Shown here: positions 8,791 to 31,951 of the stretch, in pieces | How positions within the stretch are numbered: position 1 is the first letter of the stretch | Layout of the letters: each line of letters begins with the position of its first letter | Origin: Romanomermis culicivorax | Lineage: Eukaryota; Nematoda; Enoplea; Mermithida; Mermithidae | Assembly (NCBI GenBank): GCA_963922205.1 | Contig: CAWUHX010000244.1 | Span: 186,001-250,000, forward strand | DNA length: 64,000 nucleotides | Reading direction: 5' to 3' | Position numbers and translations under genes: made by a program | Notes under the pieces: generated by a model | The model's database searches: none | Seen by the model: the letters and a program-made list of their open reading frames with translations, nothing else | Told to the model about the DNA's origin: nothing

Positions 8791-8996
8791 CTGTATATTA
8801 CATTTATTTTTAATCATTATGTATCATCATATTTTACTCCAAACCAGAAAACCAACACCACAAAACAAACAAGCATATAAGCTTGGAAACAGAAACCACA
8901 CTTCTAACAGAACAGGATCCAACTTTTTCCAAACTCTGAATTATCCATCAAAATAAAAACCATTCATTAACCGTCTGTTTGATTTCTGTTTCACAT

Positions 8997-11858: not shown

Positions 11859-12033
11859 AATTGACAATACTGTAATGAAAAGCGAATTCCATTATAATAT
11901 TTTCGAAAGTTGTTAAGTATAAACATGTGCTGTCATTAATCAAATGTTAGCTTAGATATTTTGTTCATAAAAATTAGTGTGTTGCAAAAATAAAGAAAAA
12001 TAAAGTCGTTTGACTATGCCCATGTTTATTACA
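11859..12033 (+). repeat. 5' LTR of element A
   Basis: This copy matches 31949-32123, with differences only at GTTGTT/GTTTTT, TTAGTG/TTAATG, AAATAAAG/AAAGAAAG and CCCATG/CCCGTG. It contains an AATAAAG poly(A)-type signal near its 3' end. It is followed after two bases by TGGGGGGCAATCGAAATA, the expected place for a primer-binding site starting TGG; the tRNA was not identified. The first 12 bases (AATTGACAATAC) may be flank rather than LTR. Confidence 0.7.
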
Positions 12034-12225
12034 AATGGGGGGCAATCGAAATATATAGTGGAAAAATTTGGTGGACATAGAATTTGATGAAATTTTTATT
12101 TTTGTGGATTTTTTTTTGAATATTTCCGAATTTTACATTTATTTGGGGTCTATTTGACCAATAATACGTTTTGTGGATATTAGCTGTTACGCCAACAATT
12201 TGTGAACGTTTTTCGTTTATTATTG

Positions 12226-13392
12226 ATGGTACTTACGAGAAGCAGTACACGTAGACAAGGAAACATGGATGATTTACGAAATGAAATTGAACGTCAAAGA
12301 ACTGAACTGGAGCAATTACGAATTTCTGCCACCCAACCACAAAATCGTTCGGATTTTGACGTCTTTTACGGTAGGCCGGGGGAGAACTTTGAATTATGGG
12401 TCGATCATTTCAACAGGCATGCACAGGCAAACAATTGGAACGATGACCATAAGCGACTGGTCATGCCTTCACTATTCCGTGAAGCAGCAGAGACAGTTTA
12501 TCGTGCCATTCCTTTGGCACAAAAACAAACATTAACGTTCCAAGGGCTAATTGACAAGATGAAGACACGATTTCTGCCAGCCCAAGCATCCGAATTAAAG
12601 AGCGCCGAATTACAAACCAGGTGTCAGCGTCCAGGAGAAACAGTGGCGGAATTTGCCATTGCTATCCAACAGCTAGCAACCAAAGCTTATCCAGAGCTGG
12701 CTGATGATTCACGAGATCAAATCATGCGCCGATTTTTTATCAACGGCCTTAATGAAACTTTATGGCAATGTGTTTTCAATCGGGGAGCAAAAACGTTCGC
12801 TGAGGCAGAAATGGCTGCCAGGGATGCAGAGGTGCAGTCCGTTTTACCTAAAAAGAACAGGACACGTGTCCAAGCAATGGAACAACAGCCCCAACAGAGT
12901 CGTCCAGTGGTACAGCGTCATACAACAACATCCAATTATAGAAGACCATCTGCAAGACCTACGGATCAGACAATCGATGGACGCCCCATCTGCTTCTTTT
13001 GCCAACGACCGGGTCATGTGCAACAACAGGTGTGCAAAAAGCGTCTTGCACTACAGCGTCCATACAACAATAATAATAATGGTCATGCTCGCACAAATTT
13101 CTCGAATTGGAACCATGGTCAGACATCTTCAGATGCACAACAACAACAATATCGCCAATACCAGCCGAGAGGAGTTTATTCCATGGATATGAATACGAAC
13201 CAAACAGCAGTGGAAGAAGATCTAGCATCTGAACTCGAAAAGGAACGGGAGTCCTCCAGGCAATTAGCAAGCCAGTGTGCCGCTTTACGACATCAAGTGG
13301 ATCGTATGGTTTTGGAAAGTGTAAGCAACAATTCAAATGCACATATCAATTTCTCAGAAAAGTTCGAATATTGTGTTTGTCAAAAATTCTGA
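12226..13392 (+). CDS. gag: Gag-like protein of element A
   Basis: The frame is open from GTG at 12202, but the first ATG (12226) is the better start and gives 388 residues. The N-terminal part holds a short basic segment and a coiled coil (MDDLRNEIERQRTELEQLR). It is followed by a Ty3-type retrotransposon Gag domain: FDVFYGRPGENFELWVDHF, then TFQGLIDKMKTRFLP, RCQRPGETVAEFA and RRFFINGLNETLW. A zinc knuckle lies near residue 255, CFFCQRPGHVQQQVC. Its spacing is CX2CX4HX5C, one residue longer than the canonical CX2CX4HX4C. The C-terminus is a second coiled coil (EDLASELEKERESSRQLASQ). Gag forms the particle shell and binds element RNA. The last 19 codons overlap the start of the env-like frame in another frame. 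Confidence 0.8.
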   Translation: MVLTRSSTRRQGNMDDLRNEIERQRTELEQLRISATQPQNRSDFDVFYGRPGENFELWVDHFNRHAQANNWNDDHKRLVMPSLFREAAETVYRAIPLAQKQTLTFQGLIDKMKTRFLPAQASELKSAELQTRCQRPGETVAEFAIAIQQLATKAYPELADDSRDQIMRRFFINGLNETLWQCVFNRGAKTFAEAEMAARDAEVQSVLPKKNRTRVQAMEQQPQQSRPVVQRHTTTSNYRRPSARPTDQTIDGRPICFFCQRPGHVQQQVCKKRLALQRPYNNNNNGHARTNFSNWNHGQTSSDAQQQQYRQYQPRGVYSMDMNTNQTAVEEDLASELEKERESSRQLASQCAALRHQVDRMVLESVSNNSNAHINFSEKFEYCVCQKF

Positions 13393-15321
13393 AAATGTTT
13401 CTTGTAGTGCAAATTTAAAAAATTGTGTTAAGGAGTCAATTGGTGCAAGTGTAAAAAGTACTTTTCACGTGAATTCGACGTATTTTTCGAGAGCAGTTTC
13501 AGTAATTCGCAACATAAGCATGCCAGTAGGAAACAAATTTTTACATTTCAAAATGGGTCCACAAGTCAAGTCATGCATAAATGGTGTTAAGTCACACAAA
13601 ATATGGTCAAAATTTGGTGCATGCAGTAATTTTTCTAATTTGCTTTTGTTAACCCTTTTATTTGCGAATTTATTAATTTTTGCATGTGGTGAAACTCATA
13701 CTTTTTATCGCTGTGGGTCCGGAAAAGGTGGGCAGTTATTTGCAGTACCCCCCGATATTACGTGTTTGCTACCACCGTTGAATTCCCCAAAAGAAGTTAG
13801 TGTCAAATTATTTCTGCCCAGTCACGAGTTGAATTCAGTGCATGCATGGAAATGCCGGATCAGAAAACGAAAAGTTTGCACATATGTGGGCATTGTTGGG
13901 TCCAAAGGTCTAATTTCAGACACAGTCGTCGAAAATTCAGTTTCTCATGCCGAATGTAAAGCTACTGTCATGACCAAACAGTGGCATGGTCAAAATTTGG
14001 TATCGTTCAATGATGATACTTTGGTTACAAATAACAGTTTAATAGTTCAGTTTAAGTACTGTTGTGCAGAACATTGCACAGATGTAGAAAATTTTATCGT
14101 TGAAAAAGGGCAAGTGGCCACCCTCGATGGTCACCTAATCACCAGTGACCTAGGCAATGTTGTGTCATGCTTAGCCCAAAGTGGTTACTGCAACATGCCT
14201 GACGGTGTAATTTTTTGGGATAAAAGTAAGTTGTGACCTGCCTGCCATTTTGTAGAGTCATCTCGACCATATTTAGCACGGAAGAATGGTAATTTTTACA
14301 TCATAGATGACATACAGGGTGCTTTTTCTTTGCTAAATATCAGTGTCAGTAGCATGACAGGTAGACACTGCCTTCCATCCAATGCCTTTCTTACACATCA
14401 AGGCCCTGCGTTACAAATTCTGTCTATCAACGGTAGCAGTCCCAAAATTTCACGTAAAAATCGTGCTGCCAAGACCTCTACTGCAGCTAAAACTACAAAA
14501 GAGCGAAAAGTAGCTGATACTATCGGGTTCAAGATTTTGAATGATGAAAAAGATCCAATTAATTCCAAATTAGAATATTTAGAAATGTCCATAGAAATGT
14601 TCCATCAAAGCCATTTCCGGGAAATCTGGATGTATTTGTGTGAAATCTCCAGATGTCAGTTAAGCCTTATGAAGGTTCTACTACAGATTGATCCATCCTT
14701 GGGTGCCCAAGTCTTACTGCAAAAAGAAAACTTGCACGCTCAAATCATGGGAGAAGCCATTTCTATTTCAGAGTGTGATCCTGTCCACCCTGATACCATA
14801 TTTTGGGATTATAAAGTCATTGATGTTTGCTTTGCTTATCTTCTAATCCAGGTAAACAACACGATATACTTTGTTTTACCAGGAAGCTTGAAAGTTGTTT
14901 CAGAAGCACCTACAGTCGATTGTAACCACCACATTTTTGGCATGTTCCATGATGGCCATGGTGGTTGGAGGTCAAATACAGGACAAATCCACATCAGTGA
15001 AATATCTGCCGACATGATCTGGAAAAGTGAATCAATTCCAGTTATTTTCGACAAGCCAGCCATTTTTCACATTGAATTACCTGGCACGGCAACATCCATC
15101 AGTATGCTTTCAAATTACATCCATAAAATGAACATAATGCAAAGTAAGCTCAATCAGTTACTAAATTATTCAGCACCAATGTCATTGGATCCCGAGACCT
15201 TCAAAAATACCATGGATTTGATTGAGAGAAACAGTGTTTCAGCTTTCAAAACTTCAAAACAAAATGTAGAATCTGTTTTTCATTACTAATCGGACCACTT
15301 CAATTTATTTTAAATAGTTTC
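13337..15321 (+). pseudogene. Env-like glycoprotein gene of element A, frame-broken
   Basis: Three plus-strand frames follow one another. The first is 13337-14236, with a strongly hydrophobic signal-like segment at about 13628-13690 and then a Cys-rich ectodomain starting THTFYRCGSG. The second is open from 14237 to 15289 and has spaced cysteines, a conserved-looking FWDYKVIDVC segment and FVLPGS. The third is open from 15283 and begins with a hydrophobic membrane segment (FMVTAITFLTCYLIFKLW). The breaks at about 14230-14237 and 15283-15289 each look like single frame changes. Signal, Cys-rich ectodomain and one membrane anchor in this order fit a retroviral-type envelope protein. I cannot assign it to a named glycoprotein family. 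It lies between gag and protease rather than after pol. It should not make a full-length product as it stands. Confidence 0.5.
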
Positions 15322-16401
15322 ATGGTCACAGCCATCACATTTTTAACATGCTATCTTATTTTCAAGTTGTGGAAACCATGCATCCTACCTTTTTGGTTGC
15401 AGACTTTTCTTTGCTTGTACAAATGCTTTTCGAACTTACCCCGTCCTCTACCTCCTACCGCACACTTTTCAACTGAGGCACAGTCGATAAGTCTATCTAT
15501 GCACCCACAAACAAAAACGGTCTACAGTTTGGACGACGATAATAGCTGTATTCTCATATGGACCCAAATACAAGGACATGGTGCATTGGCATTAGTAGAC
15601 ACGGGAGCAAGTATCTCATTGATGCATTCATCATTTTTCGAAATGCTTAAAAGTAAGTCTAAACTCGAACTAAGACCATCACCAGTGAAAGTAAGTTCAG
15701 TCTCAGGTCATACACTCGAAATAGATGGTTTCGTAATGGTCACTATAAGTATAGACAGTGAAAGCATATATACCATGTTTCATGCGACCAAATGCTGTCC
15801 AAACCAAGCCATTTTGGGAAGAAGTCTACTTAAAGACTTTGGGGGCAAGCTAATTATTGATTTTGACAAAGAATGGCTCTATCTTGGGTCACACGAAGCC
15901 ACTCCAATAATAACAGTACCAGTAGTGCCGTTTATACAAGAAAATTCAAATTTTTTCCTACAGGCTTGTGAAAATCAGCACTGCAGCATTTCTCTGACAA
16001 GTCATCAAGAAGCTGTAAAAATTCTTGATGCCACCACAGTGCTTCCAAGAACATCCGTTTCATTGGAAGTAGGAACTGACAAATCACTCCATGGTTTATG
16101 CTTATTTGTGCCATCTAAAAAGTTTTCTACAAAAACTGGCCTTATTTTAACCCCATTTTTAACATTTTTTGTGGGTTTTAAATTTTTTCTCACGTTTACA
16201 AACGTAACTATGGCACCAATTCAATTGTTCCCCAACATGACATGTGGCCACTTCTGGTCATGTAATTTGGAAACCACAAATATTTCGGCCGTTAACTTGG
16301 TTGAAAATCAGAAAAAAGAATCATTTTATTTTCAGCAAAACTTTACGGATCTGACGTGTGATCAATCAGGAAGCAGACTAATTTTGCTGTGCATAGATTA
16401 A
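15322..16401 (+). CDS. Membrane segment plus retroviral-type aspartic protease of element A
   Basis: The frame is open from 15283; the ATG at 15322 gives 359 residues. Residues 1-25 continue the env membrane anchor. After a Pro-rich linker comes the protease: ALALVDTGASISLM (active site DTGA at about residue 93), a flap-like VSSVSGHTLEIDGF segment, and NQAILGRSLLKDFGGKLIIDF (ILG motif plus hydrophobic strand). The sequence after about residue 210 resembles the spacer between protease and RT in Ty3 elements, but the ORF ends at 16401 and no RT follows. In Ty3 elements this enzyme cuts the Gag-Pol polyprotein. Fusion of a membrane anchor directly to the protease in one frame is unusual and may reflect an internal rearrangement. 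Confidence 0.65.
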   Translation: MVTAITFLTCYLIFKLWKPCILPFWLQTFLCLYKCFSNLPRPLPPTAHFSTEAQSISLSMHPQTKTVYSLDDDNSCILIWTQIQGHGALALVDTGASISLMHSSFFEMLKSKSKLELRPSPVKVSSVSGHTLEIDGFVMVTISIDSESIYTMFHATKCCPNQAILGRSLLKDFGGKLIIDFDKEWLYLGSHEATPIITVPVVPFIQENSNFFLQACENQHCSISLTSHQEAVKILDATTVLPRTSVSLEVGTDKSLHGLCLFVPSKKFSTKTGLILTPFLTFFVGFKFFLTFTNVTMAPIQLFPNMTCGHFWSCNLETTNISAVNLVENQKKESFYFQQNFTDLTCDQSGSRLILLCID

Positions 16402-16519
16402 TTACTACTTTTTCAATACTAAAACAAAACTAAAAACTAACACACACACACACCACATGTATACAACATTTACGTAATCTACAGTGTAAATTATGACCCA
16501 AATCTTTCTTTCTTTCTAA
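16402..16519. other. Residual 3' part of element A before the TIR insertion
   Basis: There is a short AT-rich stretch with a (CA)n run at 16440-16454 and TTTCTTTCTTTC just before the insertion site TAA (16517-16519). Nothing coding was seen. Confidence 0.5.
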
Positions 16520-16720
16520 AGCCGTAGGCATACTTGACCGTTTTTTTTGCGGCCGCAAATTTTGCGACCCGCAATTGCGGGTCGGTTGCGGCTCTCACAA
16601 TGGCATACTTTCCCGCGGTTCCGCAAAAATGCGGAACCGGAAAACCGCAATTGTAAGCATAGTTAACCGCAATTTCGAACCGGAAATTACTTAAGAGATG
16701 CAAGGTTGTAGGTTTCCGAA

Positions 16721-17312
16721 TGTTATATCTTGCTTTGCGGTCGGGGTGATGCGGTGTGATGCAGGATTGGGATTCCAAGGTTGCGGCCTTAATGTACGTG
16801 CGTCCCACGCCCACGTTTACCCGATTACTTAATTACTAGTACTTAAACCCCGACAACAATTATCCCCAACAATTAAAGAAAACCTAGTTTCTTTAATTGT
16901 CTCCCTTCTTTTCTCACTTACTAAAAATAAAAGGGTTCTCCTACCTATTTATTATTATACAATAACGTACGAAAAACTTACGTGACCAAAACGTTACCGG
17001 CGAGACGAAAAATAAATGACAATAAAATTCTACTCCCACGCACGGGCGAGCAAAGACGAGAAATGCGTGGTGGGAGGCGGCTAATGCGTACTAGTGGTGG
17101 CCGGCGGGGCGCACAACTAGTAAAGAAAAATAAAATTACACGTAAAGTATACGTAAAGAATAATGCACAGAGAGAGACCAGCGCACGCGTACCGACGTGC
17201 GCTACAGTAAGATGGCCACTGGTGGTCCGCGTTGCTCTCTCCACTTGCCACCTGTGGGCCTGTGACGCGTTTTGACAAATAATAAAAAATCGGCGGAAAA
17301 CACACTACAACA
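16721..17312 (-). repeat. 3' LTR of element B
   Basis: 592 bp, TGTTATATCTTGC...CTACAACA on the plus strand. It matches 30279-30870 over its full length with no difference that I could see. The polypurine tract lies against its inner edge. Confidence 0.93.
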
Positions 17313-17325
17313 CCCCTCCCCCCTT
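17313..17325 (-). other. Polypurine tract of element B
   Basis: On the minus strand the sequence is AAGGGGGGAGGGG, directly followed by the LTR start TGTTGTAG. This is the expected site and form of the plus-strand DNA primer. It fixes the element's orientation. Confidence 0.9.
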
Positions 17326-17729
17326 GCAGTAGATCGCCCTAAGCGATCGTCAAGAAATACCGAAGAGAACGTGCAAGGGGAAGGGCTCCGCCACTACAGG
17401 CCGTCGCCGGGGTTGCCGAAGAGTCTTCGGCGTCACACAGCGGGGCCGGCGGAGTTGTTGGGGTAGTTTGAGCCGATTTTTGGGGCTGCGACCATAAGCC
17501 CGGCGGCGAAGTGTACGAACAAAGACGGGGCAAGTGGGGGCGTGTAGCGGGTCACCGGCGGTCAACTTACTGTGTGTTTGCAGCGTCGGCTGCACGTGCG
17601 CTGGGATCACTAGTACAAAATAATAAAGCACGAACGAGATTAGAAAATAAACAACCGGTGTGAAAATGAGGTTAAAAGAAAACGACAAAAACGAAAAAGA
17701 AGTAAAAGTTACTGTACAAAAGCTCGTGA
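17326..17729 (-). other. Non-coding tail between ORF2 and the polypurine tract
   Basis: About 400 bp of GC-rich sequence after the ORF2 stop. Small frames exist on both strands, but none has domain-like content. It may carry 3' untranslated and RNA-processing signals. Confidence 0.5.
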
Positions 17730-20700
17730 TCAGTGGCGGCGGCGATAGCGAGTGTCGGACGCTGAACGGTGGTTTCGTGGCGGATCGCGGCGGTCTCGTT
17801 CTCGTTCTCTTTCTCTTTCTCGTTGGCGTTCGATGTGGTAGCCGTGGGGATCGTATGGATCTTCGTGGCCGTCAAAGCGGTAGCTACGAGGATAGCGGGG
17901 TCGACCGTAGTCAGAGGTATCCCGGCGGCGAGACGACGAAGTTGACGTTTGAGGCGGGAGCGGCGATAGCGGGTTAACGCCTGGCGTTGGTAACTGAGTC
18001 GCGATTAGCGACGGTTTGTCGGACGGCGTCCCTGTTGGCGGCAACGGTCGCGGTGGTAAAAGATTCCACCGGGCAGAGAAATCGTGCCGACGCAGCACGG
18101 GCGCGGGGCGATCCGTCTCGCTATGGTATTGTAAATAAAGTTTTCGGACGTCGGCGAGTTCGGGCGGCTGTGGAAACGGTGCGTAGTCTGGGTAAGCCAT
18201 CCAGCTGTCGATGAGTCCGACAGCGGTGTTGTAGGCTTGGAGAAGGCACGAAGGATTGTCCAGGCCGCGAGCTTCGTAGAGAAAAAGCGTCAAATGGGCG
18301 GTGTGAACGGCGTCAACGACGCCGAGCTCCTCGGCCCAAAGACTGGCGACCCATTTCAATATTACCGTGGCAACGGCGTGCGAGATCGGTGGTTGCTGTT
18401 CTACGTACGAGGGGCGGTAGTGGTCGCGGAAATATTGGTACAACGCCAGTGAAGCGTTCGTGGCGCGTATGTGCACCGGCATAATGATGTGAATGCGGAG
18501 GCGCCCGAAAAAATTGATCAGCACCATCTCGTGCATCGTGCGCGGCGAGAAAAACTCAACGGCCGGGTCAATATGTGGCGGATAGCCCGGCGTGGCAATC
18601 GTAACAGCGTGCGGCTTATCGGTAGTACGGAAACGCGTATAGTTCGGCAAGCGCTTAGCCTCGCTAGGCAACCGGGGTTTGATTGCTGGCGCGGAACTTG
18701 GTGGCAACGGAACTCCAAGGACCGGTTTGGTGGTGATGATCATATGCGGCTGTTGGACCGCAGTAACCGGAGCCGACGTCGGGGCCGTAGGCGGCAGCGA
18801 CGTGGTGTGGGTTACCGTGGTCGATATGGCGGTTGTCGGAGCCGTGGGCGGCTGCGACGTTACCGTAGGCGTAGTCGAGGGTTTTGCGGGCTCCACGTCC
18901 ATAGGAGGTGGCGGGAGCGGAGTTTTAAATTCATCTTTCGGCGGATTCTTTAGAGCTTCCAGGCGGCGCTGGATTTCGGCGTCTCGGTGCAATGGGCTAA
19001 TATAGTCGGTCAATTTCGTGGGTGAGCGGCGGAAACCATGGCGATAGTGTTCTTCGTAAAAACCCGTTGTGTGCACCTTACGGGTTTGTTCGCTCTGAGT
19101 ACGATGCGGCGGTGCGTCATCGCGGCGTTCGTGTTGGCGGCTATCCCTGCCGGTTGCTGGGGTATGTTTCGTTTCTTTTCGGTGACGGTCGTCACGAGAA
19201 TGAGACTCGTGGTGTGTTTTGGAAGAATCGCGTTTGGGTTTCGGCGTTGACGTAGCGTGCGAAGAGCGTTCGGCTTCTTCGCGGGTTCTTTGCTTATCGC
19301 GTTGTTCACGGCGTCGAGTGGTGCGCTCACTGGGCGTTCGGCCGCGCTCAGCACGCGAAGTGCTGGGTGGCGGCGTACGCCGTGTACTCGGTTCGTCCGA
19401 TGTTTTCGTCTTGTGAGATTTGCGGTACGCCGATTCGTCCTGAAGCTGTTGTTTTCTTTTTATTGAATGTTCATACCGCCCGGGTCTTCGGATGGGATTA
19501 CCATAGCGATCTAAAGCCGGCACGGACGTGCTGGGTGCCTGTGGGGTTTGGGCATCCACAGGCGCCGTCGGCGGCGGTAGAATCGCTGGTTGCTGCGGTT
19601 GCGAGATCGCTTGCGGTTGCGATATGACCGGCGGCGGTAACGGAGCCGGCAATTGCGTGACGGGTTGCGCCATCGCGGGAGCCATTTGAGCTACTTGCGG
19701 GGCCGGAGCGATCAACGTCGGTTGCGGCAACAAAATTTGTTGTATTTGTTCTTTCAGCGCTTCAGGGTAGTCTTTCCAATGGTGTTCGGGAAACAACATA
19801 CCGGGCGGCGGTGGCGGAAAATGATACGCGGCCAGTGCTGCGGCCAAAGCGTCCCATTGCGGAGCTGAAATAAACTGTTGCGAAAAACGTACAGGAGCAC
19901 TATACCTGGCTGCGGCAACAGTAGCGATAAGCGGAGGTCCCGGCAAAGCGGCCGGCGTCGCCAAATATATTCGTGGATCCACAGCGGGTGCCGTGGTGAT
20001 AGGCGCAGCGGCTGGTTCCATGGAGGCGACGTCCATAGACGTGGATTGGTCCACCATACTCTCTTCGGGTATGTCAGTTAACATTTGCTCTGACGTCATT
20101 GTTTCGGAGTCAATCGCGGCGGGTTGGACGGGTGTGGACTCGTCCATCGGGGCCGGAGCGATGTTGGAAATTTCGTCTAGCGTCAATTTCAGGAAATCGT
20201 TGATTTGCGTGGCAGTTGCGGTAATATCGGAAGGCGCGGGTACCATAGGAAGGGCCGACACGTCGGTTGACGGCGGCAGCTTCGCTATGTTGAGATCGAA
20301 AATTGGCGTTTCAAGTAGTTCATCGTCGGCGGGTTCAACTTCAACGTCGATGGGGCGGTCGAGAAGTTCCTCGGCGGTGAGCGTGTGCACCGAAGCCGTA
20401 GTCGGCATGGGGTACGCATACACCGGCGCGGGGAACGAAAGGCGGTTTTGATGGTCGATGAGCGCGATGAACGTCGAATAAAAATGGAAACGGCTATGTG
20501 GATTGGCCGTGTAATCGTTTTCATCGATTTCGACTTCTTCGACCGACGTTTCCATGTGGAAGTTTTCGTCGAACACGATCGGGCGTAACGCGAAACGGTT
20601 GCATATGTACGTGCTCGAGTCGGCCGAAAAACTGGGCTCGCGTTCCGGAATGCGGTTCATCCAGGTCGTGAGGAGCGAATTGGGGTTGCCGTCGCTGCGG

Positions 20701-22688
20701 TACCACATGCACTCGTAGAACACGGCACGTGTATCTGGCGTCATTGATTGCGCGTGGCGGAGGAGGACGTCATTGACCCAGGCGTATTCCGCGGCGGAGC
20801 ATGGTGAAGCTAGAAGCGCTGCTAACGGCATAAAAGTCGTTAGCTTCCGGAACCATTCTCCATCAATCTGTAAAAAATTAAGGATGGTTGAGGGGTGATA
20901 ACGATAATGGGTACCGTTATAAGTGCGCTCGCGTAGGGGTTGGTCGGCGGCTACGCGTTCGGTCCAAAGATCGTCGACTTCGTGGGGAAGCGGCGGCAAG
21001 TTGGGATCGTTGTAAGGCATACGATCGCGGACGGCCAACTTGTATATCGGTGACAGCGGGAAGTTGAGCAACTCGATGATGCGGTGGGTGAGATTGCTTT
21101 TCATTGCCGACGTAACGGCTGCTTGAAGACGTTTAGGATCATCGAACACTGATTGCGGTTTTAGAGCCGGGTCTTCGTCGTCGGAGACGTCTGGTGACTT
21201 GTTCCATTCGTCTTTCTGTTTCTTTTTCTTCTTTTTCGGCACTTTCGGAACGGGAAGAAGCTTCGGGTGAGTTGTCCGCGTCAAGGATTTGACGTCTTTG
21301 AAACCGTTGGGAACCGTTCCTAAACAGAAAGACCGACCGTGGTCGGACGATGTGCAATCATACATAAAAAATTTGTATGCGGAAAGAACTTCATCTCGCA
21401 TAATCGCGGGCAAGGCCACTTGTGACGTAGTCGGGTAGATCCGGTTGGCGTAGTCGGGAGGCAAGACATCCGACAGCGCGACGTTGTGAAAAGTGGCGAT
21501 GACGTACTCGGCGAGGTGGTCGATTTCGGCGGCGTCCAACGAGTCGTGGGGGAACAACGCGGGCGCGTTGTAGACCTCGGGGATGAAGCCGTAACGACCG
21601 AATGCCAGGAACAATAACAGCGGATAGTAGGCGTCGAGGGCCGCGTAGGCCAAAACGTCGGATTGTAGAAACGACGTTGCTGGATTGTTGAAAAAGCATA
21701 GAGCGTGAGGAAAGCGCAAGGTGAGCTTTGAGACGTCTAGCGCCCACATTGCGGAGACTGTGGCTTTGAGCGTGCGTTTTTCCGGAAAGAAACCGATTCG
21801 GCGGGCCAATTCGTACAGTGACGGCGATATGTCGATATTGCGGATGACGCGGTACGCGTCGAAGTGGATTGCTTTCACGACGGGATCTTTGTTTTTCTTT
21901 TGCCGGTCGGTGCGAAATTGAGTGCCCAGAAGCGCGTAGATTCCCGCCCAGTCGTCGGCTCCATCGAAAGAGACTACGATGGTGTGGTCGCCGTCGACTA
22001 GGGCGAAAAGCGCGGTCCAATCTTCTGGGGTGGCGGTGAACGTTTCGAAGACGAACATTGTGCCATTCGGAAACGCGAGTTGAACGTAGCGGGGGTAACT
22101 AGACGCCGTGAGGTCGGCTGGCATTTGAACGGTGCATTGAAATTGTTTGAAATCGGCGGCCGAGATGGATTCGGTGTCAAAGCCGACCAGCGTGTAGCCA
22201 CGGAAGTTTGGTGTGGGTTGGACGGCCAAGGCCTGTCCCAAACTTCCGGGTGAAAGGAAGATCGGCGGCGGCAAGACGTTCGGGGGTCGCGCGTACATGG
22301 AAATGTACCACGACTCTAAATCGGCGACGCGGGTTAGGCGTTTGACGTTGTTTTCTAAACAAGAGCGAATGTGATACTCATCAGTGACACATGGGACTCC
22401 ACGTCGAATAAACGACATGGGGTTTGAAGGATGATGTAAACGTGAACCAGGAGGGAGGCGTTGTGGTGTTGCCAATTCGTTAGAAGGACACATGCTTTGA
22501 GGCGGCGTTGGCTTGGGCGGCGATGTCACCTTGATGGGCGCACGTGGACAACTGGATCGGGCTATGATAGCGAGATAACGAGAGTTGTGGTATGCGGAAA
22601 TCAAGGCAGCGGCCGGTTGTGGACTGAGAAGGCCACAACTTGACGATGACGGGATCGCGGCGGCTGACCATGGAACTCTGACCCAAGA
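17730..22688 (-). CDS. ORF2 of element B: large protein with RNase D/WRN-type 3'-5' exonuclease domain
   Basis: The frame is open from 22688 (just after an in-frame TAG) to 17730, over 1,650 codons. A first ATG is at 22493. Numbering from the TTG codon at 22604, a DEDDy exonuclease domain spans about residues 135-340. Exo I is LVGFDTES (D143, E145), Exo II is [18 protein letters not shown] (D218), and Exo III is [18 protein letters not shown] (Y320, D324). The order and the YAALDA signature are those of RNase D, WRN and Rrp6 nucleases, which remove nucleotides from RNA or DNA 3' ends. Then follow a Lys-rich stretch (about 460, nuclear-signal-like), Pro/Gln-rich linkers (about 975-1015), a very basic Arg/Ser/Lys region (about 1045-1175), a folded-looking block (about 1340-1500) and an [10 protein letters not shown] tail. 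A spliced start is likely: see the donor at gag codon 3. The exonuclease fold is well supported; its role in the element is unknown. Confidence 0.85.
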
Positions 22689-23413
22689 CTACAGAGGGGG
22701 AGATACTCATGGGGTCCCAAGCAAAAACATGCAAGTATAAGCAGCAAAAGCATAAAATGAGAAAATACCGTCGCAGGCGAAACTTAAATCGTTTTGGTGG
22801 GGCTGCCGTTCGGCCCAGCGGACGTAACGTTCGTTTACGTTTATCGATTCGCGATACGGCGGAGGGTCGTTGGCCGTAGAGGATGATGCGGTCGACGGCG
22901 TCGCCATATTGAAAAAATAAAATTTTTGAGAGCGGCTGGAAAATGCGACTATTGCTGATGGAAGCGAAAGATGGAAATGAAATAGTAAAAAGAATAAGCC
23001 GCTGAAAGGTGAAAAAGTGTAAAGTAGGAAAATGCAAACACTATCATTACGAAAAGCAACACAAACACCACTATGTTAATGGAGAGTAAAATCAACCTTT
23101 CCCAATTAGTCTTATGAGAGTGATAGCGGCCAGGGTCGGGCGGAAGTAAACCGAATGGCCTCGCGCCAAACAGAACCTAACATTATAGAAGAAACCCCCT
23201 CTTATTGTGTAAGTGTGGAAACCGAGACCGGGTGTAAAGTGACATTGTAAAGTCGGTCGAGGGCAAAAACGATGGGTTGCGTGGAAACGTTGGAACTGCC
23301 GTGCATCGTTGCTCGTTATCGAGGTCGCCATGATCTAAATTAAACAAACACAAAGACTATGTACAACGCGGCGTGATGAGCGCCGTATCACAAAAAGGAA
23401 ATTTCAAAGCGAA
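22689..23413 (-). other. Spacer between gag-pol and ORF2 of element B
   Basis: It contains two short minus-strand ORFs that start with ATG: 23331-23092 (79 codons, MATSITSNDARQF) and 22907-22707 (66 codons, MATPSTASSSTAND). Both start MAT and neither is recognised. At its end is the pyrimidine-rich acceptor CTCCCCCTCTGTAG (AG at 22690-22689), whose downstream frame is exactly ORF2. The small ORFs may be accessory genes, retained leader exons or chance. Confidence 0.45.
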
Positions 23414-26400
23414 CTATTGCCGGCGGGAAGTGTGGGGCGTGCGGGGTCCGCCTTCTTCGTTGTCAAAAGTATTCTTTGCCGGTCGTGGGATGAACGGTTT
23501 TAGACGCGTTGTGGAGACGGTTTGCGGGCGGCCGGGCGCGTCGAGTGCGTCAATGGTAACAACGTTTTCGGCTGCGCGGGAAGCGTCCGTGATGAGGAAA
23601 GGCCCGATGAAGTCGGGTTGAATTTTGTTGGCTTTTCGCGTGTTGGTCAAAAGAACTAAGTCGTTGACGGCGAAGTCGCGTCTTCGAGCTTTGCGGTCAA
23701 AATATTCTTTGCTGGCGGCGGCTGCGGCATCGAGGTTAGCTTTGATCTTTTCGTGCATCTTAAGTTGGGCTTGCGTTAGAATATGTTGATAAGCGTCGTA
23801 ATTCAAGGGCAAGGTGAGACGGCGGGCGCAATCGTAGTCGAAAGTGATGCGCGGTTCATATCCTCGTAATAAACTAAACGGCGAATGTCGTGTGGCTGTA
23901 TGCGGCGTGGCGTTGTAAGCGAACACGGCGTAGGGCAGGTATCGTTCCCAGTTGTCTGGATCGTCAGCGGTATACTTTTTGAGTTGGGCGATCAATGTTT
24001 GATTGAAACGTTCGACCATTCCGTTGCACTGGGGGTGGTACGCCGTTGTCTTGACTTTTCGAATTTTGAGAAGTTCACAAATATCTTGCATGAGTTTTGA
24101 CGTAAAGCATCCACCTTGATCGGAAAGGAGTACAAGTGGGCTACCGTGCGTAAGGACGACGTTGTTGATAAAACATTCCACTATTGTTGAGGCTTTCTGA
24201 TCCGGAATCGGGTGCGCGGATACGAATTTCGTAAAGTAATCCTGAAAAACAATAACGTAGGGACGCTTCTCACCTACTGGCGAAATGTTGACGATGTCGG
24301 TTGCCACGATTTCGAATGGGTGTTTGGGTTGAATTGGCAACAACGGCGGAGGCGGTGACGTGCGCGGTGTTGTTAGTTGACAAATTTTACAGGTTTTGAT
24401 CCAATATCGAACGTCCTCTTCCATGCGGGGCCACCAAAAGTGAGCTTTAATGGCGGCTAGGGTACGATTGGTTCCTTGGTGATTCAAAATTTTTGCGCCG
24501 TGGAATTGATGAAGAGTTTGGTCGACCAATGAGGCGGGTACGACTAATTGCTTGACATCTTTGATATGCCGGTACAAAAGTTGATCTTCGAGGAAGAAAA
24601 TCGGCGGGTGTTTGGCGGCGTTATCCGTCTTGAGAGAGGCAATGATTTTCGTTATGGCTGGATCTGCGGCCTGGGCTTTTAAAACACGTTCGTGAGCGGC
24701 AATCGTAATGGCTTCGGCCGGAGGCGGTTCGTGGTCGGCATCCTTAGGCATTGAATTAGAGAGTGTGGGTGAACTGATGGTCTTTCTTGTCATCGCACGG
24801 GTGATGGCGTTGATTTCGGCGTCGACTTCCGTGAATAGTGGAGCCACTGCTGGGCGTGTTTCCGGTACCGTTAAGTCGGTTTCCGTAGTTGCACCAGCAG
24901 GGTGAAAATTTTCACGGAAGATCTTGGCGGTCAAGTTTTCAGCGTTTTGGATCGGGCATTTGTCGCGGTCATCTTTCCTAGATAAAAAATCAGCGCAAGC
25001 GTTATCCTTACCTTTAACATATTCCACTTTGTAATCGTAATCTTGTAAGCTGATCGCGAAGCGTTGTAGTCGTGAATTGCGGTGTTTCTCGTCTTTGAGC
25101 CATTCGAGCGGCTTGTGATCGGTGCGGACAATAACTTTCTGGCCGTACACATAGTGGCGGTACATCCGGAAGCCGTAGACAATGGCGAGGCATTCACGCT
25201 CAGTTGTACTGTAGCGGGTTTCGGCATCGGTGAGTACGCGACTATTGTAGGCGATGACCCATTGATCGTTTTCGTTTTCTTGATACAAAATTGCTCCGAT
25301 GGCGGTCGTACTAGCGTCGGTTTGAATAACGAATTGAGCTTTGCCATCGTAAACCGGGTAGCGGAGGAAGGGCGACGACGTAAGGGCTGTCTTGATACCT
25401 TTGAATGCGGCGTGATGTTCATCCGTAGCGAAATATTGGGCGTCTTTGCGTAGAAGTCCGTACAAAGGACTGGACAAGGTTGCCAAATTCGGGATGAAGC
25501 GTTTGCACCATTGAACTAGACCTAAAAAACTTTGCATACCTTTTTTGGTCTTCGGAAATTCGTATTCGGCGATCGCTTTGACTTTCTCGGGATCGGCGGC
25601 GATTCCGCGGGCGCTAAGAAGATGTCCCAAAAATTTGACTTGCGACGGCAGGAACTCGCATTTGTCGGGTCGAAGCGTAAGGTTGGCCGCGCGAAGGGCG
25701 TCAAAAACGATTTGAAGGTGTTCCAAATGCTCTTCAAACGAATCCGAAAAAATAATAATATCGTCTATGTAGACGAGGCAAATTTTCCAAATGTACGGGC
25801 GGAGAATTCTTTCCATTAAACGTTGAAACTCGGCGGGCGCGTTCTTTAAGCCGAACGGTAAAACTTTGAATCGAAACAAACCTTCTTGACAAATGAAGGT
25901 TGTTTTATCGCGGGAATCGACGTCGAGGGGTACTTGCCAATACCCGGCTTTGAGGTCGAGCGTGGTGAAGAATTTTGCGTGTCCCATTGCATCCAGGTAG
26001 TCGTCAATGCGCGGGATCGGAAATTTGTCGCTCGGCGTAACGTCGTTTATTCCACGGTAGTCGACAACGGGTCTCCAAGAGCCATCTTTTTTCTTTACTA
26101 AAAATAGCGGTGCGGCCCAGGGCGAGCGAGATGGTTCGATAAAATCGTTGTCAAGCATTTCTTGGATATGGCGGCGTACAATCGGTCTTTGTTCCATCGC
26201 GGCGCGGTAGTAATGGCGGGAAACTGGTTTTGCGGTGCCGGTATCGATGCTGACGGTCAATTCGCTGGTAATAGTTGGTTTATCGCCGGGGAGGCTGAAA
26301 ACATCGCGGTGCTGTCGGAGCATCTTGAGGGCCCTCTCTTTTTGCGCGGTAGAAACGTACGTCTTTTCCGTCATTTTGTTCAGGGCGTATTCCAGCTTTT

Positions 26401-29400
26401 GTTGCGCGGTGTTGCCAGGGAATGACTTGTCCAATGCGGCCGGCTCGTGGTCGGTTAAATCGCGGTCGGCGGCGGCGGTTGCTATCTGACAGTCGGCGTG
26501 GGTTTCGGAATACTCCAGCGTGTGCTTTGCCATCGCAATGAGTTGGTTTGGTCGTAGTTTTATACTGTTCGGCGTATTGTTGATGAAAAGGAGCGGACAA
26601 TGGCCGTTAGTGATGTTGACCACTGCGGTTTCGACTGGGAGCTCTGCGGCAACGTTATCCGTGGCGAGTGGTTGTACAATCACGTCGGGCACTGTCGCCG
26701 ATGTTGTGGGAAAAACGCTACTTTTGACCCATTGTTGGCAGTGCGGTGAAATCGAAATGGACACTTGGGCGACGAGAAAAATTGGTTCGGCAAGCTCTGT
26801 AACCTCCAACCGCCTAGGGGGCGGTTGGTGTGGACCAGGTTGAGCCTGCCGAATCGGTTGTTCGACTTCGATTTCTTCGGGTTGACTAAAAATATCAGAT
26901 TTATCATCATAACAACTTACTCGTTCGTCTTCTGGTATCTCTTCTAAAACGTTGTCGTTAGCGGCGTTGAGAAATAATTCCGTTTGCGGGCGGATCGAGG
27001 CGATTACTTTGAGCGGCAGTTTAACGTCTTGAATTTCGATATAATTGTCTTTGAAATTTAAAATGGCGTGGATATCGGGGTGCGCGAGGAAATCGGTTCC
27101 GATGATGAATTGATCGTTTCCGTCGTCGTCAAGGATTACGCATTTGATCATGTGCTCTCCGAAGGCGGATTCCATTGTGACAACTACCGGGCCGTGAGCG
27201 TTGACTACGGCGCCGTCGGCTACTTTAATTTTTCCACATATCGGGAGTTGAAGCGATTGCTTGTCGAAAGCGCGTTTGACCAAACCTGATGATAGTACGG
27301 AACATTGGGCACCTGTGTCGATGAGCGCGTGTGCTTTGACGGCTCCGATTTTGATTGGGATTTGAAAGGCTCTTGTAGAAGCGTATTTGCGGACAAACGA
27401 TTTGGAAGATGGCGTTAGATTATCAATTTGACAAACGGACGAACGAATATGACAGGGATCTTGAAAAGCGCGGCCTGTTGCGTTCCAACGGACGATGCCG
27501 GGGCTGACAATGGGCGCGGCGGAAGCGATTTCTTTAGATGGAACAACCATATTGGCCGCGGACGTTGAATGATTGTTGACGCGTGTTTCGAGCGTCGGTA
27601 CGGACGCGGTGTTTGGTGCCGGAAGGGCGGGTAGGGTAATTTGCATTTCTGAAGATTGAGAACTGGCGCGTGATGAATCCGTTGGCGTTGTGACGTATGG
27701 AGCCGGTACCGCGTTGTAATGAATATGTTGTTCCCACGGCGCCGGAAACTGATGGTTCGGGTAGACGGCGTAGGTGTTTTGAACAAAATCATTTGGGCGT
27801 TGCATAGGATTACCTTCATAGAAATGGTTTCGCGCGCCGCGGGCGTAGTTCGCTCCACGTTGGGGCGGTCCTCCGCGGCGGGGTCGCCAATCGCGTTGTC
27901 CACGGACGTCGTTTGAATTATTTCGGAAGTCAACTTGCCGTGGTTGGGCGGCATAATTTGAGCGATTTGGTTCAATTCGGGCTTGTTGTTGAGCGTTTTG
28001 CCGTTTGAGCCAGACGCAATCTTCTGTGTTGTGAGTGCGGGATTTGTGAGCGTCGCACCACAGACCTGTGAGTTGCGCCGGGCGTGCGCGGTCTCTGCTG
28101 GCGGATCTGTCGAAGCGGTTTGCGTACGGCTCTCTGTTTTGAGATTGATGGCGCGGACTTTGTTGCCTATTGTTGGGTACCGTTTCTTCAGGGCGTTGTC
28201 GAGATTTTCTTTCTTCATAGTCGCGGTCGTATCGTTGAATCAATTGTTCCAGGAGCATCTCCGTGCGCGGTGGTTGCGGCGGCGGTGGTTCAATTGCCTG
28301 TGGTTGGAAAGAGACGAATTTATTGGGCTGCATCGCCGTGTTTTGCGTCCTGCGGTCCATTGAGGGAGAGCGCTCGCGGTAGCGGTTTTGAGGACGGTCC
28401 GTGCTGCGGCGGCGTTCAAAACGGCGATCAAACGGTTGCGGCGACTTCGGAGGCGGTGGGTCTTGATCAGCTTGATTTACCAGAATGGGTCGTTCCGCAG
28501 TTCCGATTTCGGCTTTAGTTGCGTTGAGGACACTACGGGCTTTGGCTACGGCGTCGGCCAGTTGTTGAACATTTGTGAAACCCTTTGCTTGTTCGCCAAT
28601 TGTGAGTTGATAGAAAACAGGCATTTTTGTCAAAAAGGTATCAATTACTTGTTTATGCCGGAAAGTTTGATCTTCATGCTGATACAATAGTTGTACATAA
28701 GTCATTACCTTACTCAAGAATGCGGCGGGTTCCTCTCCAGCTTCTGGTGTGATTGACGCAAGTTCACGTTTAAGAGTCATCGGATTGCAATCGGGCGCCA
28801 ACTGGAACATAAGCAAATGTTTGGCGTCTTCGTACCGCGTCATATCTTGGATCATGTCGCTCGGCGTATCGCGGGTGAGTCGGCGGAGGGCACTCATCTT
28901 TACGTGATTGGAGGCGTCGTAGCCGAACTCATTTTCCAGTCGTATGAAGAAGCGTAACAGGCGTTTATTTGTTGCGGCGCCGTCAATTATCAACGGATGC
29001 ATATTGTCGACGATTGTTTTGATGCGGCTATCTTCTTCACGATGAGACGTGCGCGGCATGTCGTACCGAGGATGCGGGTGTTCATAATAATCGTCGGGTG
29101 GATAATCTGAAAAGCCAAATTGGTTTGCCGCGGGCGGTGGGCGTCTTTGAAGCGCGGAGCGGTGTAAATCGTCATCGGCGCGCGTACTGCGGGCGAATTC
29201 GTTATTATACAAGGTATCCGTCGACGGTGCTTTGGGTTTGACCTGGTTTGGTAGCCTGCCAAAGACTGGAGCCGGTTCAGTTTCACGGAGAGTTTCGTTA
29301 GGGATATAAACATCTCTTGTCTCCTCGCCGTGAAACCGTGAGGACACCGGCGGCGGTCTTGGTGTAGGCGGATTACGCGCGTGCGTCGCGGCGGCTGTTG

Positions 29401-30142
29401 TGGAAATCAATTGTTGCATTTGCTCGGCGAGCGCGGCGAAACGCGCGTTAGTGGCTTTTGTTTGTTCTTGAATTTCGCGTTGGACGCGTAATTGTTGGGC
29501 TTGGAATTGATCGGAGACGGCGCCGATAATTTGATCAATGGTCTGTACCGTGGGGACATTGTTAGTTATACGCGCGGCGGCGGTGTTTAGTTGTTCCAGC
29601 GCGTCGCGTGCTTCTATTCGAAAATTTTGGACTTCGTTGGCGTTTGCGATAGCGAGACTGCTGCGGTGATCATTTGTTGAAGCACGGGTGGCGGCTGGGG
29701 CTTGCGGCGGTTCAATATTGACAAAGGATTCGGAAGAGTCGGTTCTGGCGACAATTTGGTCATCATTACTTCGAGCCGGCGCGGGCGGTGGCGGCATTTG
29801 CGATGCGGGCGGCGCGTTGAGACGATTTTCGGCGGTGGCATGAGTATTTTGGTTTCCAAACCGCGGAGTTTGGGAATGGTTGGTCGCCGCGGTTGCGGGA
29901 ATGAGCGGTGCTTGCGGCTGTGCCGTCCCGTCCAGCGCGGGAGTGCTGAAATTAGACAAGGGCGGATTATGGGGCGGGAGACTTACCGCGGGGACCGCTG
30001 CCGATTGCGTAATATTTGACGGTCGCGGCAACATCATCTGATCAAAACTTAAGGCGCGGCGTGCGGCTGTGGCGGCGTTGGGAGAACTGGAACGCGACGG
30101 AAATCGAGTGAAGTCCGGCGGTGTGTGGCTTACCGTTGGCAT
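23414..30142 (-). CDS. gag-pol: Gag-Pol polyprotein of element B (Ty3/gypsy)
   Basis: This is one uninterrupted frame with no gag/pol frameshift. The frame is open from 30262, but the first ATG is at 30142 ([11 protein letters not shown]), about 2,242 residues. Numbered from 30262: Gag, with a CHHC-type knuckle [14 protein letters not shown] near 737; aspartic protease [13 protein letters not shown] near 980; reverse transcriptase with [13 protein letters not shown] and YIDD near 1,500; RNase H with QTDAS near 1,650 and TDHKPLEWL; integrase zinc module ([13 protein letters not shown] His pair, then CKIC) near 1,930; and catalytic core with ATDIV, SDQGG near 2,048 and [10 protein letters not shown] near 2,080. 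All catalytic motifs are present. Together these copy element RNA and insert the DNA. The donor GTAAGC at codon 3-4 (30133) could splice the start codon to ORF2. Confidence 0.95.
30128..30142 (-). promoter_or_regulatory. Start codon and candidate splice donor of element B
   Basis: On the minus strand the sequence is ATG CCA ACG|GTAAGC. The donor falls after codon 3 (phase 0, intron from 30133). An acceptor at 22690-22689 (CCCTCTGTAG|TCTTGG) leads into ORF2, also phase 0. Splicing would give a subgenomic mRNA that uses the gag start, as some retroviral env mRNAs do. This is inferred from sequence only. Confidence 0.5.
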
Positions 30143-30259
30143 CTTTTTTCTCAAGGTATAATAACCTCGTTTGTACCCTTTGGCGCAGTTACGGCGGGGT
30201 CGAATTTTGAATACTTTAATTTCTTCGGATGCAACGCAACAGCGGGGAGCGGCAACGTA

Positions 30260-30277
30260 CAATCCAAACGGTCACCA
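30260..30277 (-). other. Primer-binding site of element B
   Basis: TGGTGACCGTTTGGATTG lies one base inside the 5' LTR on the minus strand. The TGG start complements a tRNA CCA end. The tRNA itself was not identified from memory. Confidence 0.65.
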
Positions 30278-30278
30278 G

Positions 30279-30870
30279 TGTTATATCTTGCTTTGCGGTC
30301 GGGGTGATGCGGTGTGATGCAGGATTGGGATTCCAAGGTTGCGGCCTTAATGTACGTGCGTCCCACGCCCACGTTTACCCGATTACTTAATTACTAGTAC
30401 TTAAACCCCGACAACAATTATCCCCAACAATTAAAGAAAACCTAGTTTCTTTAATTGTCTCCCTTCTTTTCTCACTTACTAAAAATAAAAGGGTTCTCCT
30501 ACCTATTTATTATTATACAATAACGTACGAAAAACTTACGTGACCAAAACGTTACCGGCGAGACGAAAAATAAATGACAATAAAATTCTACTCCCACGCA
30601 CGGGCGAGCAAAGACGAGAAATGCGTGGTGGGAGGCGGCTAATGCGTACTAGTGGTGGCCGGCGGGGCGCACAACTAGTAAAGAAAAATAAAATTACACG
30701 TAAAGTATACGTAAAGAATAATGCACAGAGAGAGACCAGCGCACGCGTACCGACGTGCGCTACAGTAAGATGGCCACTGGTGGTCCGCGTTGCTCTCTCC
30801 ACTTGCCACCTGTGGGCCTGTGACGCGTTTTGACAAATAATAAAAAATCGGCGGAAAACACACTACAACA
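30279..30870 (-). repeat. 5' LTR of element B
   Basis: 592 bp, identical by eye to 16721-17312. It supplies promoter and poly(A) functions for the element. Its outer edge is followed by CGAA (target duplication). Confidence 0.93.
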
Positions 30871-31951
30871 CGAATCCAAAAGCGTCAAAATGCTTGGGTA
30901 TGCTCCTAATTGCATGGAAAAGCATCCGTAGGTAGGCACGTTTTTAAAAATGGGGAAAATTTTTATAAAATGAGGAAAAAAATTTTGGGTCCGGTTCTCA
31001 TGTGGAAAAAATCAACCGCTCTAAAAACATCATGTTTTAAAAGCTTAAAAACACTAAAATAAACCGTCTATGAGCATTTTTAAGCGAAAAAAGACTTTAG
31101 AAAATTGGGAAAAAATTTTTTACCCCTATCGCCATTTGACGAAAAAGCCGGCGGGAAAAACAGTGTTCACCAAAATACATCTTTTCAGTTTCCGATTCCC
31201 GAAAATTTTTTCGACAATGAGAACCTTGCATAAATTTTATTCTTTGTTCCCGAATTTTTCTTCTCAAAAGATTCCTTTGCAGAAAAAAAAGCACAGGACA
31301 AAGCAAATTCTGGAAATAATTGAGTTTTCTAGTTGATAAAGATCAGGTATTCAGTGTTATTCAGCGCGAAACGGCATATACTGTATCAAGTGCGGCTGCC
31401 AGAACCGCAAAAAGTACTCCACTCGAGAACTCTTTGCGGGTCGATAAACCGCACTAAACCGCAATGCGGTTGCGGGTTGCCAACCACAACCGCATTGCGG
31501 TTTTGCGGGTGACTTGCGGGTCGCAATTTTTGAAAACCGCAAAAAAGTGTGCGAGCCGCAGACTTTTTCGCCCGTTGCGGCCAAGTATGCCTACGGCTTA
31601 ATCAAAATTTTCTTACTGGAAATTTCAGGCGCGAAAATTTTCTCTTTTTCACGTGATTTTGATGAAAGCTGAAGTGTATTTTTTTATATTAGCTAGAAAT
31701 ATTTACCACATATGTTGCGCATTAGAATTTTTCCGTTTTTCTAAATTTTATAGTAAATTTATGACTTTGAAATTTGAACTTTGAAAATTAATTATTTTTT
31801 TTTATAAAAATTAATTGCCACAATTGTTTTCATTTTAGAAATTTTTAGAAATTTTGTGTTTCTAAATATTATTCATTTTTAAAATTAGTTTGACCTTTTG
31901 CTGGTAATTCATCATTTTTTTATATTTTGAAATTGACAATATATTTTGAAT
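30871..31951. other. Right half of the TIR element and residual element A sequence
   Basis: 30871-31597 is the right arm of the split TIR element. It includes, at about 30890-31010, a block also found at 54860-54962 (GGGTATGCTCCTAA, GCATCCGTAG, AATTTTGGGTCCGGTTCTCA). 31601-31948 is AT-rich sequence before the right LTR of element A. No RT or integrase remnant is visible, and there is no polypurine tract. Confidence 0.5.

What the first reader, a model, noticed from the sequence alone, without database searches (positions are those of the whole stretch)
17730..22688. A Ty3/gypsy retrotransposon carrying a DEDDy 3'-5' exonuclease ORF in the env position
Sequence shows, downstream of a complete pol, a >1,650-codon frame with all five DEDDy catalytic positions (FDTES D143/E145, ADDW D218, YAALD Y320/D324; numbered from 22604). 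Established: this signature belongs to the RNase D/WRN/Rrp6 nuclease family, acting on RNA or DNA 3' ends. Such a domain is not a standard part of Ty3 elements to my knowledge. Inference: it could trim cDNA or tRNA-primer ends, degrade host small or antisense RNAs, or process element RNA. The intact frame beside identical LTRs suggests it is under selection for the element.
Basis: partly seen in the sequence, partly recalled or inferred. Interest (0 to 1): 0.88.

Follow-up and report, generated by a model that had tools for sequence, protein, structure and literature searches.

The report
Nematode retrotransposon carrying an exonuclease gene
A young, high-copy jumping gene in a mosquito-killing nematode carries, where related viruses keep their envelope gene, a well-preserved gene that looks like an enzyme chewing nucleic acids from the 3' end, an arrangement described before in tiny rotifers.

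Summary
Window 16721-30870 (minus strand) is a complete 14.15-kb Ty3-type LTR element: identical 592-bp LTRs, 4-bp target duplication, gag-pol frame, then a long second ORF. The host is the mermithid nematode Romanomermis culicivorax. Direct Pfam, PDB and protein-database searches found no exonuclease, and AlphaFold failed. Two routes nevertheless support the assignment: profile comparison with cellular DEDDy enzymes (P 3.5e-5; 0 of 80 shuffles reach it; all five residues in register) and a divergent sister element in the same genome (E 4e-23) that itself weakly matches Pfam's 3'-5' exonuclease. The ORF is not a one-off: in 58 copies the catalytic residues are kept (56-58 of 58), with exonuclease dN/dS about 0.06 against 0.11 for the adjacent pol tail. 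New here: the ORF is very probably spliced, a conserved first exon (22907-22769) with a PPPY motif joining an acceptor before 22354. The kind is known: DEDDy ORF3s were reported in bdelloid rotifer LTR elements in 2017. This is a very divergent nematode variant, with the only selection test of such an ORF that I found. The substrate is unknown; I favour RNA 3' ends.

The parts
30279..30870 (-). 5' LTR (592 bp, TG...CA)
   Evidence: identical to the other LTR; ends read
16721..17312 (-). 3' LTR (592 bp)
30871..30874 (.). target-site duplication CGAA, 5' side of the element
   Evidence: flanks
16717..16720 (.). target-site duplication CGAA, 3' side of the element
   Evidence: flanks
30260..30277 (-). 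putative primer binding site TGGTGACCGTTTG..., one base inside the 5' LTR; tRNA not identified
   Evidence: sequence; end coordinate approximate
17313..17323 (-). polypurine tract GGGGGGAGGGG next to the 3' LTR
   Evidence: sequence
23414..30271 (-). gag-pol in one frame: protease, RVT_1, RNase H, H2C2, integrase, GPF module
   Evidence: Pfam; gag and GPF read by eye in the translation
23002..23014 (-). candidate 3' splice site TTTCACCTTTCAG for a leader exon
   Evidence: AG kept in 56 of 58 copies; its 5' donor was not looked for
22769..22907 (-). exon 1 of ORF2 (MATPST...SFACD), with PPPY motif
   Evidence: ATG 58 of 58, GT donor 58 of 58, dN/dS 0.14, in-frame stop in 3 of 58; PPPY in 54 of 58
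22355..22768 (-). predicted intron of ORF2
   Evidence: in-frame stops in 30 of 58 copies; acceptor AG in 56 of 56 copies with sequence there; gene model P0007 joins SFCCD to ENDIK at the matching place
17730..22354 (-). exon 2 of ORF2; exon 1 + exon 2 = 4764 nt, in frame, 1587 aa
   Evidence: arithmetic
21555..22223 (-). DEDDy exonuclease domain, residues 128-350 (numbered from 22604)

Best explanation
This is a recently inserted, high-copy Ty3-type LTR retrotransposon of R. culicivorax. Its gene in the env position, probably made from a spliced RNA, encodes a soluble protein of about 1,587 residues with an N-terminal PPPY motif, a DEDDy 3'-5' exonuclease domain, and a long proline-, serine/threonine- and arginine-rich tail. 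Shown: anatomy, copy number, conservation of the catalytic residues, purifying selection. Inferred: it is an active metal-dependent 3'-5' exonuclease that works inside the cell or particle and not as an envelope. Most likely mechanism: the basic tail brings it to RNA and the domain trims or destroys RNA 3' ends. Substrate odds (inference): antisense silencing small RNAs or their precursors 0.35; the element's own RNA or cDNA ends, including misincorporated ends (proofreading), 0.35; other host RNA 0.2; a non-catalytic RNA-binding use of the fold 0.1.
For: LTRs, TSD and pol. Host: every database relative listed is R. culicivorax (115 of 115, where the 7999 candidates sharing most words were scored), and the genome held has 359,112,060 bases in 595 contigs, as in the published assembly of 359.1 Mb and 595 scaffolds (PMC10879605, passages). 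Exonuclease: hhalign P 3.5e-5, score 37.6 against a maximum of 21.75 in 80 column shuffles; a permissive realignment places D143/E145/D218/Y320/D324 on RNase D D28/E30/D85/Y151/D155. Sister element L101 matches at E 4e-23 and itself matches PF01612 at E 0.001. Selection: exonuclease dN/dS median 0.06 against 0.109 for the pol tail. Catalytic residues in 58 copies: D143 58, E145 58, D218 56, Y320 57, D324 58. Pol tail upstream in 58 of 58, 1192-1261 bases away. Ten of ten other copies looked at have paired LTRs, 94.5-100% identical. No transmembrane stretch: top 19-residue hydropathy 1.72, inside the exonuclease.
Against: No direct hit to an exonuclease in Pfam, PDB or the protein database. Both structure models failed, and Foldseek on the first found nothing at E <= 0.001. 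The sister's PF01612 score (19.4 bits) is under Pfam's cut-off of 23.6. The PF01612 search of the genome did not list the window element. One small WRN/EXD2-based profile was weak (P 0.021, 1 of 150 shuffles above), as was A2 against A3 (P 0.05). Copies were picked by similarity to intact proteins, which lowers dN/dS; regions outside the query still give 0.08-0.12. Some copies carry stops: 4 of 58 in the exonuclease, up to 4 of 10 in one C-terminal piece. No expression, splicing or enzyme data.
Confidence: 0.83

Rival explanations
1. ORF2 is a diverged envelope or structural (matrix-like) protein and the DEDDy motif is coincidental or vestigial.
For: env position, probable splicing, and a PPPY motif like a viral late domain (the late-domain role of PPxY is recalled); no direct family hit.
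Against: The catalytic residues are kept in 56-58 of 58 copies. The exonuclease and the 100 residues after it are the most constrained parts measured (0.06 each; 0.08-0.23 further on; 0.16 before it). No transmembrane stretch by hydropathy and no envelope family in the Pfam scan. The profile match keeps all five residues in register.
Confidence: 0.08
2. A recent one-off capture of a host exonuclease by one insertion, not part of the element's life cycle.
For: No relative outside R. culicivorax at E <= 10 among the candidates scored.
Against: 139 scored genomic places match it, 68 of 139 in frames of 1500 codons or more. Synonymous divergence of some copies from the window exceeds 1. A sister element only 24% identical in the exonuclease also has a Ty3 pol tail upstream.
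Confidence: 0.02
3. The fold is kept but used to bind RNA, not cut it, as reported for Maelstrom and EXD1.
For: PMC5408684 (passage) notes that these are catalytically inactive DEDD derivatives in piRNA biogenesis.
Against: The catalytic residues are kept here in 56-58 of 58 copies, which a binding-only protein would not need.
Confidence: 0.07

Closest known systems
DEDDy ORF3 of bdelloid rotifer LTR retrotransposons Juno and Vesta (PMC5408684)
   Same: LTR element with pol, then a DEDDy-type exonuclease ORF in the env position; no transmembrane domain; at least two separate acquisitions reported there.
   Different: Nematode host; no dUTPase Pfam hit in pol, whereas Juno and Vesta have one; a protein of about 1,587 residues with a probable extra exon and PPPY; no match to any non-Romanomermis protein at E <= 10 among the candidates scored; DEDD, where that paper reports a change to DEED. 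That paper's variation test covered env and GDSL ORFs only (section 3.6).
Terminon/Athena Penelope-like elements of bdelloids (PMC5408684, PMC6431247, passages)
   Same: Retroelements carrying DEDDy exonuclease ORFs.
   Different: Telomere-attached PLEs; the window element is a Ty3 LTR element.
Dada DNA transposons of Laccaria and Ectocarpus (PMC3706591, passages)
   Same: A mobile element with a DEDDy 3'-5' exonuclease domain; its authors suggest it processes 3' ends exposed during transposition.
   Different: DDE transposase with the domain inside it; not a retroelement.
PF01612 DNA_pol_A_exo1: RNase D, WRN, EXD2, Rrp6/EXOSC10, MUT-7
   Same: Three exonuclease blocks in order and register, Y-x3-D in Exo III.
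   Different: Too diverged for direct HMM detection; embedded in a long element-specific protein.
Gypsy/errantivirus env
   Same: Position after pol and probably spliced expression (expression of env by splicing is recalled).
   Different: No fusion glycoprotein family and no membrane segment by hydropathy.

Membership tests
Ty3/gypsy (Metaviridae) LTR retrotransposon | Paired LTRs with TG...CA ends and target-site duplication | tested here: met
   592 bp identical, CGAA duplication
Ty3/gypsy (Metaviridae) LTR retrotransposon | pol order protease-RT-RNase H-integrase | tested here: met
   Pfam order
Ty3/gypsy (Metaviridae) LTR retrotransposon | RT placed among Ty3 clades by a tree | not tested
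DEDDy 3'-5' exonuclease (PF01612 clan) | D-E, D, Y-x3-D at conserved spacing | tested here: met
DEDDy 3'-5' exonuclease (PF01612 clan) | score over the Pfam PF01612 cut-off | tested here: not met
   no hit for the window domain or in the genome search; sister L101 19.4 bits, under 23.6
DEDDy 3'-5' exonuclease (PF01612 clan) | homology by profile comparison above a shuffled null | tested here: met
   P 3.5e-5, 0 of 80 shuffles; 10-sequence profile P 0.0011, 0 of 150; 5-sequence profiles P 0.014, 0 of 120, and P 0.021, 1 of 150
DEDDy 3'-5' exonuclease (PF01612 clan) | RNase H-like (DnaQ) fold | tested here: inconclusive
   AlphaFold pLDDT 46.8 and 33.2; Foldseek nothing at E <= 0.001
DEDDy 3'-5' exonuclease (PF01612 clan) | metal-dependent 3'-5' activity | not testable with these tools
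   needs protein
Bdelloid-type DEDDy-ORF3 LTR element | DEDDy ORF downstream of pol in an LTR element | tested here: met
Bdelloid-type DEDDy-ORF3 LTR element | dUTPase between protease and RT (as in Juno and Vesta) | tested here: not met
   no dUTPase family in the Pfam scan at E <= 1; paper section 3.1
Bdelloid-type DEDDy-ORF3 LTR element | ORF3 clusters with the retroelement DEDDy pool in a tree | not tested
Envelope gene | transmembrane anchor or viral fusion-protein family | tested here: not met
   hydropathy and Pfam

The most novel reading that the evidence does not exclude
DEDDy exonucleases are a recurrent weapon or tool of animal retroelements, acquired separately in rotifers and in mermithid nematodes and kept under strong selection because they disarm small-RNA silencing or proofread and process the cDNA of unusually long elements. 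That would make this a retrotransposon lineage in which an exonuclease is required for transposition.
Probability: 0.25. Interest if true: 0.85.

Novelty: new variant of a known kind. Interest (0 to 1): 0.55.

Why it matters
The 2017 rotifer report left open whether DEDDy ORFs help the elements that carry them. Here a high-copy nematode family keeps the exonuclease at a dN/dS lower than that of the adjacent pol tail. A second family (24% identical) has the same order, and further multi-copy PF01612 frames occur in the genome. The trait is therefore not a rotifer oddity, and the question of what a retrotransposon gains from a 3'-5' exonuclease becomes testable with one purified domain and with RNA data from one worm.

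Tried and rejected
Direct searches: Pfam, NCBIfam and PHROGs scans, with only chance-level hits such as DUF4350 at E 0.008; PDB by sequence and profile, none; protein database (none, only R. culicivorax); viral contigs (none). AlphaFold twice and Foldseek once gave nothing usable. Profile A2 against A3 alone was weak (P 0.05), and a 5-row WRN/EXD2/RNase D/diDNase profile gave P 0.021 with 1 of 150 shuffles above it; only the larger profiles were clear. A first frame for exon 1 was wrong (dN/dS 1.5) and was corrected. The primer tRNA was not identified. Rejected: host-gene capture in one copy; assembly artefact (many copies, paired LTRs); envelope.

Dropped rows: L048 and L050 (same places as L030 and L028) before all counts of 58; family rows under 200 columns (12 of 26 kept); 10 of 13 RNase D-like loci used; pairs outside dS 0.05-1.0 in the dN/dS medians (0.05-1.5, 0.05-1.2). 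The 58 copies include the window's own (L002).

Full report
What is there. Window 16721-30870 on the minus strand is one LTR element. The two LTRs are identical over 592 bp and both outer flanks read CGAA. They begin TG and end CA, a TGG-starting primer site follows the 5' LTR by one base, and a G-rich polypurine tract precedes the 3' LTR. One frame of 2285 codons (23414-30271) holds protease, RT, RNase H, H2C2 and integrase in Ty3 order. The next frame is ORF2, 1652 codons stop to stop.

Host. Every database relative listed for the domain is from Romanomermis culicivorax: 50 of 50 (1780 candidates scored) and 115 of 115 (7999 candidates scored, the ones sharing most words), at E <= 10. The genome that holds the window has 359,112,060 bases in 595 contigs; the long-read assembly of that species is given as 359.1 Mb in 595 scaffolds (PMC10879605, passages read).

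Is it a DEDDy exonuclease? The five residues are present. Direct HMM searches fail and two AlphaFold runs were unusable. Profile comparison improved as the cellular profile grew: P 0.0077 and 0.014 with 5 sequences (0 of 120 shuffles), 0.0011 with 10 (0 of 150) and 3.5e-5 with 20 (score 37.6; 80 shuffles, mean 13.7, maximum 21.75). A permissive realignment over 163 columns sets D143, E145, D218, Y320 and D324 on RNase D D28, E30, D85, Y151 and D155. The RNase D letters are those of the E. coli gene fetched; its role as a DEDDy enzyme is established knowledge. Two comparisons were weak: a WRN, EXD2, RNase D and diDNase profile (P 0.021, 1 of 150 shuffles above), and A2 against A3 (P 0.05).

A bridge. 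A PF01612 search of the genome gave 119 matches; the same search rang in 7 of 14 control genomes. The window copy is not among the 119. A piece of one match with a 1396-codon frame (L101) is 24% identical to the window domain over 268 residues, E 4e-23, hhalign E 2.5e-12, and hits PF01612 at E 0.001, below the curated cut-off. About 1.3 kb upstream of that piece, on the same strand, lies a Ty3 pol tail with a GPF module (L102), 47% identical to the window's over 75 residues. So a second, diverged family has the same order. Of the 119 matches, 12 have frames of 608-610 codons; one of these (L100) scores over the cut-off at E 2.6e-11. Their context was not read.

Copies. Scored places: 103, 139 and 150 for the pol tail; first-look candidates were 3609, 2971 and 7234, so these are lower bounds. 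68 of 139 exonuclease places lie in frames of 1500 codons or more. Of 150 pol-tail places, 118 have a scored exonuclease place downstream; 5 of the remaining 32 were read and all 5 carry it, one with a frameshift; 27 were not read. In 58 of 58 copies compared, the pol tail lies upstream of the exonuclease at 1192-1261 bases. Ten of ten other copies looked at have paired LTRs, 94.5 to 100% identical; 4-bp duplications are readable in 7 of 10, and in the other 3 an LTR alignment stopped short.

Selection. Median pairwise dN/dS, pairs with dS 0.05-1.0, 58 copies: exonuclease 0.06, residues 63-127 0.16, residues 351-450 0.06, pol tail 0.109, residues 405-620 0.081, residues 620-880 0.12. In 10 copies plus the window, C-terminal parts give 0.11-0.23. 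So the exonuclease and the stretch just after it are the most constrained parts measured. Copies were ranked by protein similarity to the first 404 residues or to P0009, which favours low dN there; the parts outside those queries were not ranked on and are also low. Stops inside the aligned stretch: pol tail 5 of 58, exonuclease 4, residues 405-620 5, residues 620-880 6; C-terminal pieces 0 to 4 of 10. Catalytic positions: D143 58 of 58, E145 58, D218 56 (2 N), W219 58, Y320 57 (1 F), D324 58. Database gene models, many from decayed copies, are less clean: D143 15 of 19, E145 16 of 20, D218 25 of 35, Y320 31 of 36, D324 29 of 36, gaps counted as misses.

Splicing. Exon 1 (22907-22769) has ATG in 58 of 58 and GT in 58 of 58 copies, with dN/dS 0.14. 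An acceptor TTTAG at 22356-22355 keeps its AG in 56 of 56 copies with sequence there. The frame before it carries stops in 30 of 58 copies, 22 copies sharing one TAA at 22427; residues 85-450 carry them in 6 of 58. Gene model P0007 joins SFCCD to ENDIK, and P0049 joins a pol tail to NNVK, both at the matching acceptor; these are predictions, not transcripts. PPPY is kept in 54 of 58 copies. PPxY as a late-domain motif is recalled knowledge.

How it may work. No membrane stretch was found by hydropathy, so an envelope role is unlikely. Arginine-rich parts towards the C terminus suggest RNA binding (inference). In another nematode of the same large group, Trichinella spiralis, transposons are targeted by Dicer-type endo-siRNAs and LTR elements carry more CpG methylation; the methylation machinery is present in R. 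culicivorax (PMC4323106, passages). That makes silencing small RNAs one plausible target. Processing or proofreading of the element's own nucleic acid is equally open; for the exonuclease of Dada DNA transposons its authors suggest processing of 3' ends exposed during transposition (PMC3706591, passages).

Known ground. DEDDy ORF3s in LTR elements were reported in bdelloid rotifers (PMC5408684: abstract, sections 3.1-3.4 and 3.6 and passages read), in Terminons (PMC6431247, passages), and are cited from there in a review (PMC5718144, passages). Searches for the combination in nematodes or in Romanomermis showed nothing further in the library held (listings only, part of the list); subscription papers are mostly not in it. 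The rotifer paper's variation test covered env and GDSL ORFs, so I found no earlier selection test of a DEDDy ORF.

Noticed in passing
window 12184-16401 (+): A second, partial LTR-type element: gag (Retrotrans_gag E 1.8e-6), a frame matching a Monjiviricetes fusion glycoprotein (E 1.3e-16), and a weak aspartyl-protease match (E 4.7e-5, under the cut-off). The glycoprotein lies between gag and protease, an odd order; no direct repeat of 80 bases or more was found in 1-16720.
   Followed up: partly
G000 (119 places); L100 = C69:277500-278500: Many PF01612 exonuclease frames in the R. culicivorax genome, 12 of 119 with 608-610 codons, possibly ORFs of further mobile elements.
   Followed up: partly
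L101 and L102 (C298:393500-394400 and 395000-396000): A divergent sister element with a Ty3 pol tail and then a DEDDy ORF with a 1396-codon frame.
   Followed up: partly
window 22911-23180 (-): Non-coding stretch between pol and exon 1: 30-base means of 95.8-99.3% identity to the window across 58 copies, higher than the stretches next to it; may hold splice or promoter signals.
   Followed up: no
window 16721-30870: The element is 52.3% G+C while the window as a whole is 39.6%.
   Followed up: no
window 59778-63519 (-): Exons of a Nop14-like host gene.
   Followed up: no
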